Below are positions 46,470 through 49,633 of a DNA stretch of 64,000 bases, one piece after another. Position 1 is the stretch's first letter, and every line of letters starts with the position of its first letter. A model generated the notes under the pieces. That model made no database searches, was not told the origin of the DNA, and worked only from the letters and a program-made list of their open reading frames with translations. A program made the translations under genes and the position numbers. Origin of the DNA: Candidatus Pantoea edessiphila (GTDB lineage: Bacteria > Pseudomonadota > Gammaproteobacteria > Enterobacterales > Enterobacteriaceae); assembly GCF_002933335.1 (NCBI RefSeq), contig NZ_PDKS01000001.1, positions 310,001 to 374,000 on the forward strand, in the 5' to 3' direction.

Positions 46470-47432
46470 ATGATTAAAAAAGTAGGAGTTTTAACAAGTG
46501 GAGGAGATGCACCAGGTATGAATGCAGCTATTCGTAGCATTGTACGTTCTGCATTGAGTGAAGGGTTAGAAGTTTGTGGAATTCAAGATGGTTATCTAGG
46601 TCTATATGAAAATAGAATAATTAATTTAAATCGTTATAGTGTGTCAGACATGATAAATCGCGGTGGTACTTTTCTCGGATCTGCTAGATTTCCAAGATTT
46701 CTAGATAAGCAAGTTAGAAAAGATGCTATAGAAAACATGAAAAAATCTGGTATTGATGCATTAGTAATTATAGGGGGTAATGGCTCTTATATGGGTGCTA
46801 TTAAAATAACTGAGATGGGATTTCCTTGTATTGCCCTACCGGGAACTATTGATAATGATATAGCTGGTACTGACTATACCATAGGTTATTTTACTGCACT
46901 TGAAACTATAGTAGAAGCAATTGATCGTTTGCGCGATACCTCTTCTTCACACCAACGTATTTCCATAGTTGAAGTTATGGGCCATTATTGTGGAGATTTA
47001 ACATTAGCATCTGCAATTGCGGGAGGATGTGAATTTATAGTACTACCTGAAATAACATATAATAGAGAAGAATTAGTAAAAGCAATAGAACAGGGCATAA
47101 ATAAAGGGAAAAAACATGCTATAGTTGCAATTACAGAGCATATTTGTAATTTAGATGATTTAGCATGTTTTATAGAAACAAAAACTAAAAGAGAAACTCG
47201 CATAACTGTATTAGGTCATATCCAAAGAGGAGGAGCACCTTGTGCATATGATCGTATTCTAGCTTCTAGAATGGGTAATTATTCTATTAAATTATTAATT
47301 GAAGGATATGGAGGTCGCTGCATAGGAATACAAAATGACAAAATGGTGCATCATGATATTAACGATACTATTACATACATGAAACGTTCATTCAAAATTG
47401 AATGGTTAAACATTGCCAAACAACTTTATTAA
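46470..47432 (+). CDS. pfkA: 6-phosphofructokinase PfkA with altered active-site residues
   Basis: PfkA phosphorylates fructose 6-phosphate. It has 320 residues, exactly as in E. coli, without indels. The catalytic D-N-D in G-T-I-D-N-D, H-Q-R and the G-H-I-Q-R-G-G signature are present. Two normally invariant positions differ: G-G-D-G-S reads G-G-N-G-S (residue 104 counting Met, Asp103 of E. coli, the Mg-ATP ligand; codon 46779-46781), and M-G-R-Y-C-G reads M-G-H-Y-C-G (residue 172, Arg171; codon 46983-46985). The frame is otherwise intact, so the gene is expressed or only recently relaxed. Confidence 0.93.
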
Positions 47433-47511: not shown

Positions 47512-48273
47512 TTAAATACTGTTCATTACAGCTAATTTAACTATTTTTGAGAATATTTCAGCATTTAAAGAAGATTTGCCTACTAATAAGCCATCTACAT
47601 CTGGTTGACTAATAATTTCAGCAGTATTATCTATATTAATAGACCCACCGTATTGGATAATTACAGTTTTAGCAACAATTTTATCTTGTTTTTCAAGATA
47701 ACTTCTAATAAATCTATGAACGTGTTGTATTTGTGTAGGAGTTGCTGCTTTTCCAGTCCCAATAGACCAAACAGGTTCATAAGCAATAACTGAGTTTTTG
47801 AATATTTCTATTCCTTGATTATTAATAATGGATTTTATCTGAAATTCACAGACCTCTCTAGTTTTACCTTGTTTTTTTTCTAATGCATTTTCACCAATGC
47901 ATAAAATAGGTGTTAAGTTAAAGGATTTAATTAATGCAAATTTTTTTGCTATATGTTTATTGGTTTCTTTATGATAAATACGTCGTTCAGAATGACCAAC
48001 AATAACATATTGTGCACCTATTTCTTTTAACATTTTAATCGAAATATCACCCGTAAACGCTCCTGATATATGAACATCAACGTTCTGAGCACATATTTTT
48101 ATTTTACTAGATATAATTTTTTTTATCATATCAAGATATAATAAAGGAGGCGCAATTGCTACTTGACATTTATCTACACTATGTATTTTCTCATTAAGTT
48201 CACTAATTAAGTTTCGTATTGTTAAAAAACTTCCATTTAACTTCCAATTACCTATAATCAGTATATTTTTCAT
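47512..48273 (-). CDS. tpiA: triosephosphate isomerase TpiA
   Basis: TpiA interconverts dihydroxyacetone phosphate and glyceraldehyde 3-phosphate. The product has 253 residues (E. coli 255). The catalytic lysine is K11 in G-N-W-K-L-N-G, the histidine is in V-G-H-S-E-R-R, and the glutamate is in Y-E-P-V-W-S-I-G-T-G. The phosphate loop reads L-V-G-K-S-S-L instead of L-V-G-G-A-S-L. It converges on pfkA. Confidence 0.96.
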   Translation of the reverse strand: MKNILIIGNWKLNGSFLTIRNLISELNEKIHSVDKCQVAIAPPLLYLDMIKKIISSKIKICAQNVDVHISGAFTGDISIKMLKEIGAQYVIVGHSERRIYHKETNKHIAKKFALIKSFNLTPILCIGENALEKKQGKTREVCEFQIKSIINNQGIEIFKNSVIAYEPVWSIGTGKAATPTQIQHVHRFIRSYLEKQDKIVAKTVIIQYGGSINIDNTAEIISQPDVDGLLVGKSSLNAEIFSKIVKLAVMNSI

Positions 48274-49145: not shown

Positions 49146-49633
49146 ATTTTAAGCCTTTCAAATTTTTATTTGTTAATATATAAATAAATTGGTTAATTTA
49201 ATATTAAGTTAATAACTAAAAATCAAAATATTTTATTTATAATAAATAGTAAAACATCGATTTTATATTTTACTATGGTAAAAACTAATAAAATTTAATA
49301 TTGTTGATATAACAGTTAATATTTCATTTGCAAATAACATATTTTATGTATCATATTTTATTATATTAAATAATAAAACAATTGCTATGTTCTGAAAATA
49401 TATTTTTATTGCAATAATTATAAATGTATATCAAAATTTTGTTTATATTAAAATTTTATCCATGCACCGTTAATGTTAGATTTTAATCTTTCATTAATTC
49501 AAAAGCAAAAAATTTACCTGCTTAATATTTTATACAAATAATTTTATTACCAATTGATTTTAAATTAACAAAATTAACAATTTTAAAAGCCCAACTAAAT
49601 AAAGCTAGGCTTACAGTAATTTACTTTATGTAA
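49146..49633. other. spacer between hslU and fpr, no gene seen
   Basis: This is 488 AT-rich bases. Apart from a weak terminator next to hslU, nothing was recognised. Confidence 0.55.
49581..49612 (-). terminator. hslU: probable hslVU terminator
   Basis: On the minus strand AAGCC (plus-strand GGCTT at 49608-49612) pairs with GGCTT (plus-strand AAGCC at 49587-49591) and is followed by TTTTAAAA. It lies just beyond the hslU stop. The stem is only five pairs, so confidence is limited. Confidence 0.45.

What the first reader, a model, noticed from the sequence alone, without database searches (positions are those of the whole stretch)
46779..46985. PfkA has lost two active-site residues (D103N and R171H) in an otherwise perfect frame
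The G-G-D-G-S Mg-ATP motif reads G-G-N-G-S, and the Arg of M-G-R-Y-C-G is His. Both positions lie in the active site of E. coli phosphofructokinase-1. Length and the rest of the protein, including the G-T-I-D-N-D catalytic aspartate, are unchanged. Either glycolytic flux through PfkA is reduced or lost in this symbiont, or the enzyme tolerates or compensates for the changes.
Basis: partly seen in the sequence, partly recalled or inferred. Interest (0 to 1): 0.6.

Follow-up and report, generated by a model that had tools for sequence, protein, structure and literature searches.

The report
Symbiont phosphofructokinase missing two active-site residues
The only phosphofructokinase found in a stink-bug symbiont has swapped two amino acids of its active site, the same two that other reduced-genome bacteria have repeatedly lost one at a time, yet the gene is strongly conserved and no substitute was found, so the enzyme most likely still works, probably more slowly.

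Summary
pfkA (46470-47432, +) encodes N at E. coli position 103 and H at 171. It is not a private error: five of six genus genomes share N103+H171; the sixth has D103 with N171. Across 177 related PFKs the two positions stand out among active-site residues: D103 changed in 17 (about 7 events), R171 in 9 (about 5), all in AT-rich genes; of 13 other active-site residues 12 never changed and R243 changed once, in a broken gene. In that set only this clade lost both. The gene is not decaying: omega 0.03, second lowest of 13 genes, though weaker selection in the N103 clade (0.036 against 0.009). The genomes keep PTS EI, a PTS IIC, pgi and transaldolase; PfkB/FruK gave no hit over cut-off, G6PDH and two FBPases none. 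R171S in E. coli reportedly costs about 75% of kcat. Best reading: an ATP-type PfkA still active but slower. No activity was measured. PEP synthase, in five genomes but not matched in the sixth, keeps a split-glycolysis rival open.

The parts
46470..47432 (+). pfkA, ATP-dependent 6-phosphofructokinase, 320 aa plus stop
   Evidence: ORF; TIGR02482, NF002872 over cut-off; 1pfk, full length
46779..46781 (+). codon AAT = Asn at literature position 103 (Mg-ATP motif GGNGS, 46773-46787)
46983..46985 (+). codon CAT = His at literature position 171 (MGHYC, 46977-46991)
46842..46859 (+). GTIDND, with G124, T125, D127 (catalytic base) and D129 intact
   Evidence: role of Asp127 from PMC12203962 (passage)
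47512..48273 (-). tpiA, triose-phosphate isomerase, next gene; comparator for selection
   Evidence: TIGR00419
45494..46378 (+). fieF, cation efflux pump; comparator for selection
   Evidence: NF007064
44468..45292 (+). cysE, serine O-acetyltransferase; comparator for selection
   Evidence: NF008349

Best explanation
This is the only PFK found in, and most likely a still functional ATP-type PfkA of, an Edessa stink-bug symbiont ('Ca. Pantoea edessiphila' group). Two tolerant positions of its active site were replaced by G->A changes, the direction favoured in AT-rich lineages: R171 first (now H, or N in the sixth genus-mate), D103 later (now N). Shown: the changes, their sharing, purifying selection, retention of the other examined catalytic residues, and no PFK substitute, G6PDH or FBPase found in the searches made. 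Inferred: the order of events; that catalysis goes on with D127 as base and T125, D129, R72, G11, R162, R243 and R252 holding the substrates; that Asn103 still offers an oxygen to the Mg-water shell and His171 part of the lost charge, so binding persists while kcat falls; that a slow symbiont tolerates this; and that losing opposite charges together may partly compensate.
For: N103+H171 in 5 of 6 genus genomes, the sixth D103 and N171. omega(pfkA) 0.0315 over six genomes, second lowest of 13 genes (hslU 0.022; the other eleven 0.057-0.114); lnL -3242.8 against -3778.4 for omega = 1. 4 of 127 family-invariant sites changed. In 177 PFK rows (176 distinct DNA sequences) D103 changed in 17 and R171 in 9; G11 (one gap), R72, G102, G104, T125, D127, D129, R162, M169, G170, E222 and R252 in 0; R243 in 1. 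Among 107 AT-rich sequences a G->A replacement step was open in all gap-free rows at D12, D127, D129, R72, R162, R252 and E222, and no residue changed there. In the six genus genomes: PfkB/FruK family none over cut-off, zwf 0 of 6, fbp 0 of 6, glpX 0 of 6; ptsI 6 of 6, PTS IIC 6 of 6, pgi 6 of 6, tal 6 of 6. In the window genome the IIBC is PtsG, and Crr and an HPr lie beside ptsI. R171S in E. coli: KM negligibly changed, kcat down nearly 75%; the R171K strain grows 81% faster than the R171S strain (PMC11808435 citing Hellinga & Evans 1987 and Rajpurohit 2023; passages). All eight effector-site residues examined are kept in the genus. Predicted fold intact: AF2 pLDDT 85, TM 0.93 to 1pfk.
Against: No activity of N103+H171 or of D103N was seen in any call. 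Selection is weaker in the N103 clade (0.036 against 0.009, p = 0.0006, about 0.007 after correction for 12 genes). In the same E. coli study R171S cut mevalonate yield from 0.20 to 0.05 g/g, so even the single change has a cost. The five N103 genomes keep PEP synthase while the sixth shows no match, so a PfkA-poor metabolism is conceivable. 19 of 392 family genomes have no detectable PFK, so reduced genomes can lose it. The PfkB-family search did give sub-cut-off matches in 5 of 6 genomes (24-81 bits, cut-off 216.4), which I take for other sugar kinases without having tested them. Tree-wide dS of 6-8 means saturation, so omega values are rough. What D103 loss costs rests on recall of D103A only.
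Confidence: 0.72

Rival explanations
1. Fully compensated enzyme: the paired loss of one negative and one positive side chain, perhaps with changes elsewhere (K110I in the five; A269N in the whole genus), restores near-normal activity.
For: D103N and R171H are the only non-conservative changes at family-invariant sites in the window protein; purifying selection stays strong; the two lost side chains have opposite charge.
Against: In the 177-row set every other D103 loser keeps R171 and every other R171 loser keeps D103, so the two are not obligatorily coupled; few clade-specific changes could serve as partners; selection is weaker in this clade.
Confidence: 0.15
2. Catalytically dead PfkA in a split glycolysis: the glucose PTS feeds the hexose-phosphate half, PEP synthase feeds the triose half from pyruvate, and the pfkA frame persists by inertia or for another role.
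For: ppsA (797 aa in the window genome, TIGR01418 1146.9 bits, cut-off 739.75) is in the five N103 genomes and no such match was reported in the D103 genome; weaker selection on pfkA, ptsI and tal in the five.
Against: omega 0.036 in the five and D127, T125, D129, R72, R162, R243, R252 intact in all; pfkA has lower omega than tpiA, pgi, tal and the four PTS genes tested; R171S alone is reported to keep about 25% of kcat. The absence of ppsA from the sixth genome rests on cross-hits of one EI-family search of a 30-contig draft.
Confidence: 0.1
3. Change of substrate or phosphoryl donor (PPi, or sedoheptulose 7-phosphate as proposed for clostridia without transaldolase).
For: D103 lies in the Mg-ATP motif; a PFK-based route replaces transaldolase in cellulolytic clostridia (PMC7029132, title and start of abstract seen in the listing).
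Against: Transaldolase is present in 6 of 6; G104 and G124, which I recall as the ATP-type signature, are kept; TIGR02482 is over cut-off and the PPi models listed are under theirs.
Confidence: 0.03

Closest known systems
E. coli PfkA (PFK-1; 1pfk, 2pfk)
   Same: Same length, predicted fold, and all examined catalytic and effector residues but two; locus order fieF-pfkA, tpiA, fpr, hslU as I recall it for E. coli
   Different: D103N and R171H
PfkA of genus-mate G003 (fits SoBr, the Brachystethus symbiont, by contig number)
   Same: Same neighbours, 81% identity; also lost R171
   Different: R171N, D103 kept; no PEP synthase match
Other PFKs of reduced genomes with one of the two changes
   Same: D103N/E/G in six further genera (g39, g45, g120, g161, g89, g137) or R171H/C/K in three (g48, g124, g19)
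   Different: Only one of the two residues is lost in each
Distant PFK paralogues L070, L074 (Anaerolineae MAGs; GGWNA with MGHYC)
   Same: Differ at both positions and carry MGHYC
   Different: 28-33% identity, dropped before the 177-row count; in L070 the TIDND motif reads SINNN, so the base is lost too, and L074 has no aligned motif there; they look non-catalytic

Membership tests
ATP-dependent PfkA (TIGR02482 / PFK-1) | Whole-protein score over the curated cut-off | tested here: met
   396.8 bits, cut-off 371.35
ATP-dependent PfkA (TIGR02482 / PFK-1) | Catalytic base D127 with T125 and D129 | tested here: met
   GTIDND intact; T125, D127, D129 in 177 of 177 rows
ATP-dependent PfkA (TIGR02482 / PFK-1) | Mg-ATP motif GGDGS with D103 | tested here: not met
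   GGNGS; D in 160 of 177 rows. Descent is not in doubt; the feature is lost
ATP-dependent PfkA (TIGR02482 / PFK-1) | R171 of MGR | tested here: not met
   MGH; R in 168 of 177 rows
ATP-dependent PfkA (TIGR02482 / PFK-1) | Fructose-6-phosphate and effector residues | tested here: met
   R162, M169, E222, R243, H249, R252 and R21, R25, R54, D59, R154, E187, K211, K213 kept in the window protein
ATP-dependent PfkA (TIGR02482 / PFK-1) | PFK activity with ATP and F6P | not testable with these tools
   needs an assay
PPi-dependent PFK | Score over PPi-PFK cut-offs; Asp104/Lys124 (recalled signature) | tested here: not met
   the PPi models listed are under cut-off; G104 and G124 kept
Pseudogene | Frame breaks or loss of purifying selection | tested here: not met
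   no stops inside in 6 of 6 genus genomes; omega 0.03

The most novel reading that the evidence does not exclude
Reduced-genome symbionts have run a natural mutagenesis of PFK: D103 and R171 form a dispensable rate-tuning pair, and the Edessa clade shows that a PFK can be the indispensable gate of glycolysis without either, using a charge-neutral Asn/His active site and a different Mg arrangement, possibly tied to a partly split glycolysis fed by PEP synthase.
Probability: 0.2. Interest if true: 0.65.

Novelty: new variant of a known kind. Interest (0 to 1): 0.42.

Why it matters
It marks which residues of a textbook active site can be given up while the enzyme is kept: in this sample the changes at 15 active-site positions fell almost wholly on two (12 of 13 inferred events). 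It warns against reading loss of a 'catalytic' residue as loss of function in reduced genomes, and it gives a direct test (one enzyme, two residues, four combinations) of how a symbiont's glycolytic gate may be throttled.

Tried and rejected
Sequencing error: rejected, five separate genome records share both residues. Recent pseudogene: rejected by omega and conservation. PfkB, FruK or oxidative-pentose rescue: no hit over cut-off and 0 of 6; the sub-cut-off PfkB-family matches were not followed up. Sedoheptulose role for want of transaldolase: transaldolase is in 6 of 6. PPi donor: not supported. Decay in the window's own branch only: omega of the WIN tip 0.037 against 0.031 elsewhere, 2dL 0.29. 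Strict coupling of the two losses: not supported, other lineages lost one only.

Papers: Berger & Evans 1992 is not held; that its D103A keeps F6P binding with lower activity is recall. Hellinga & Evans 1987 was not looked up; it is cited through PMC11808435. Passages only were seen of PMC11808435, PMC12203962, PMC12889660, PMC7728854 and PMC8032781. PMC12203962 and PMC12889660 hold none of Asp103, D103, Arg171, R171. No paper on N103/H171 in symbiont PFKs appeared in the listings, of which one search showed 20 of 78 papers and one search showed 12 of 94. The pentatomid symbiont paper PMC8032781 has no 'glycolysis' or 'pfk' in its main text.

Not done: aldolase, gapA, pgk, eno, pyk, edd/eda, gnd and pckA were not searched (all 12 genome searches used). 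The structure model gave no coordinates, so no distance between positions 103 and 171 was measured. Residues were read in 69 of the 107 other genomes with a match, in the 80, in 8 more, and in the 44 loci; the remaining, mostly large, genomes were not read. Event counts come from one gene tree (FastTree), where long branches may cluster.

Full report
WHAT IS THERE. The window holds an intact pfkA, 46470-47432 on the + strand, 320 aa, between fieF and tpiA. It is over the cut-off of TIGR02482 (ATP-PFK) and under those of the PPi models listed. Codon 46779-46781 is AAT and codon 46983-46985 is CAT, so literature position 103 (Met-numbering 104) is Asn and 171 (Met 172) is His. Against E. coli PfkA the alignment has no gap.

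WHERE IT COMES FROM. The genome is 840,997 bases in 11 contigs. Its five held genus-mates include G001, G002 and G004, whose pfkA contigs have the same lengths (378,824, 30,344 and 365,863) as records titled Candidatus Pantoea edessiphila SoEE, Pantoea sp. SoEX (Edessa oxcarti symbiont) and Candidatus Pantoea edessiphila SoEL. Size and contig number of the window genome fit SoET, the symbiont of Edessa sp. 2 (0.841 Mb, 11 scaffolds, coverage 172x), and G003 with about 30 contigs fits SoBr, the symbiont of Brachystethus rubromaculatus (0.843 Mb, 30 scaffolds), in Table 1 of PMC8032781 (passages). Both identifications are inferences from these numbers.

IS IT FIXED. The five Edessa-type genomes (window, G001, G002, G004, G005) carry AAT at 103 and CAT or CAC at 171; G003 carries GAT (D) and AAT (N). 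The six form one clade in a PFK tree, support 0.986, and the five within it 0.963. From CGT, CAT is one step and AAT two, so an early R171H with a later change to N in G003, and D103N after the split, is the simplest order (inference). D103N and R171H are both G->A changes if the ancestral codons were GAT and CGT.

HOW UNUSUAL. I took 201 PFK-like frames from the loci, dropped 3 duplicate records and 22 distant ones (45% identity or less, all) and aligned the remaining 176 with the window protein: 177 rows, 176 distinct DNA sequences, since L034 and L218 are the same gene. Of 15 active-site residues, all invariant in 67 high-GC sequences (three high-GC rows at 60% identity or less are in neither set), D103 is changed in 17 of 177 (N 11, E 5, G 1), R171 in 9 of 177 (H 6, N 1, C 1, K 1), R243 in 1 (a broken gene, L207), and the other twelve in none, one row having a gap at G11. 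All 21 rows with a change at 103 or 171 are in the AT-rich set. On the tree that is 7, 5 and 1 changes. Changes at D103 occur in seven genera by handle (g1, g39, g45, g120, g161, g89, g137) and at R171 in four (g1, g48, g124, g19). Chance of 12 of 13 events falling on two of 15 positions is about 4e-8 after allowing for the choice of pair; this takes the events as independent, which shared descent within genus g1 may break. Mutational access does not explain it: in the 107 AT-rich sequences the codons at D12, D127, D129, R72, R162, R252 and E222 offer a G->A replacement in every gap-free row, and no residue changed there. The AT-rich set is defined by gene GC of 0.455 or less and includes a few species that are not insect symbionts (L043-L045 by their titles). 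Against a special status: 201 of 320 sites change at least as often as D103 on the same tree, whose median is 12 changes; the two positions are labile only by active-site standards. Within the 177 rows only the Edessa clade and G003's genus-mates at R171 are involved in this genus, and only the five Edessa-type rows lost both residues; of the 22 distant rows dropped, L070 and L074 differ at both (GGWNA, MGHYC), and L063 and L071 read otherwise at 103 in the pairwise alignment.

IS THE ENZYME STILL SELECTED. A codon model (own script, GY-type, F3x4, six genomes, fixed tree) gives omega 0.0315 for pfkA, against hslU 0.022, cysE 0.057, fieF 0.061, ptsG 0.068, ppsA 0.069 (five genomes), pgi 0.074, fpr 0.075, crr 0.076, ptsI 0.077, ptsH 0.084, tpiA 0.087 and tal 0.114. 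omega = 1 is rejected for pfkA by 535 log units. The five N103 genomes have omega 0.036 against 0.009 on the G003-plus-stem branch (2dL 11.74, p 0.0006); ptsI (p 0.003) and tal (p 0.04) move the same way; the other nine of 12 genes tested are not significant, and cysE leans the other way (p 0.067). So the gene is under strong but somewhat relaxed purifying selection. Tree-wide dS of 6-8 in six genes means saturation; I trust the order of genes more than the values.

DOES THE CELL NEED IT. In the six genomes the 1-PFK/PfkB family (which I take to cover FruK) has no hit over its cut-off of 216.4 bits; five genomes have weaker matches (24-81 bits) that I did not identify. G6PDH is found in 0 of 6, class I FBPase in 0 of 6, GlpX in 0 of 6. 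Present in 6 of 6: PTS EI, a PTS IIC, Pgi and transaldolase. In the window genome the IIBC is PtsG (829.6 bits, cut-off 647) and Crr, over its cut-off, lies beside ptsI; the HPr there passes the HPr family model but not the E. coli-type equivalog. Glucose thus probably enters as G6P, becomes F6P, and on this gene set can reach triose phosphates in quantity only through PfkA (inference from known pathways; the lower glycolytic genes other than tpiA were not searched, nor was gluconate entry). One finding cuts the other way: PEP synthase (797 aa in the window genome, TIGR01418 1146.9 bits) lies in the five N103 genomes and no such match was reported in G003, so PEP and trioses could be made from pyruvate.

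MECHANISM. Asp127 is the general base that activates the F6P 1-hydroxyl (PMC12203962, passage); it is intact, as are T125, D129, R72, R162, R243 and R252. R171S in E. coli PfkA is reported to leave KM nearly unchanged and cut kcat by nearly 75%, and the R171K strain to grow 81% faster than the R171S strain; in that study's own cultures R171S lowered mevalonate yield from 0.20 to 0.05 g/g (PMC11808435, citing Hellinga & Evans 1987 and Rajpurohit 2023 for the first two; passages). I recall, without having been able to read it, that D103A keeps F6P binding with reduced activity (Berger & Evans 1992, not held). Both residues thus look like rate residues rather than residues on which binding or the base depends, which matches their being the two that drift. 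The likeliest result is a slower PfkA with ordinary binding and regulation; all eight effector-site residues examined are kept in the genus, while four of them (R25, R54, D59, K211) change in 22-32 of the 107 AT-rich sequences. An AlphaFold2 model (pLDDT 85, pTM 0.83) matches 1pfk at TM 0.93; it says nothing about catalysis.

VERDICT. Real, shared by a clade, part of a wider pattern, most likely a tolerated slowing of an enzyme that cannot easily be spared. It stays a member of PfkA by descent and score, with two defining residues lost. Activity is unproven.

Noticed in passing
L207-L210 (genomes G335, G263, G395, G154, genus g137): In these 300-kb genomes PFK is only about 50% identical to the window's, carries D103E in all four, and has internal stops in two (G335, G263): PFK at the edge of loss.
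   Followed up: partly
107 AT-rich rows of the alignment (effector-site columns): The allosteric site erodes in AT-rich sequences (R25 changed in 22, R54 in 30, D59 in 30, K211 in 32 of 107), while the window genus keeps all eight effector residues.
   Followed up: partly
L227:680-3073 (-), genome G000: PEP synthase is kept in the five N103 genomes; G003 gave no such match. Its fate may be linked to PfkA slowing.
   Followed up: partly
family survey: 19 of 392 family genomes, from seven reduced-genome genera plus one incomplete 3.1-Mb assembly, have no detectable PFK.
   Followed up: no
window 49146-49633, between fpr and hslU: Only about 0.5 kb remains where, as I recall, E. coli has glpX-glpK-glpF and other genes; glpX is found in 0 of 6 genus genomes.
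   Followed up: partly
L144 (genome G430, genus g45): Position 103 is Gly (GGA) in an otherwise intact PFK frame, while the four other members of that genus read keep Asp.
   Followed up: no
L115 (G003:C3:50394-51179): A PfkB-family protein (80.9 bits to TIGR03168, under the cut-off, 475-aa open frame) was reported at this strength only in G003; not identified.
   Followed up: no
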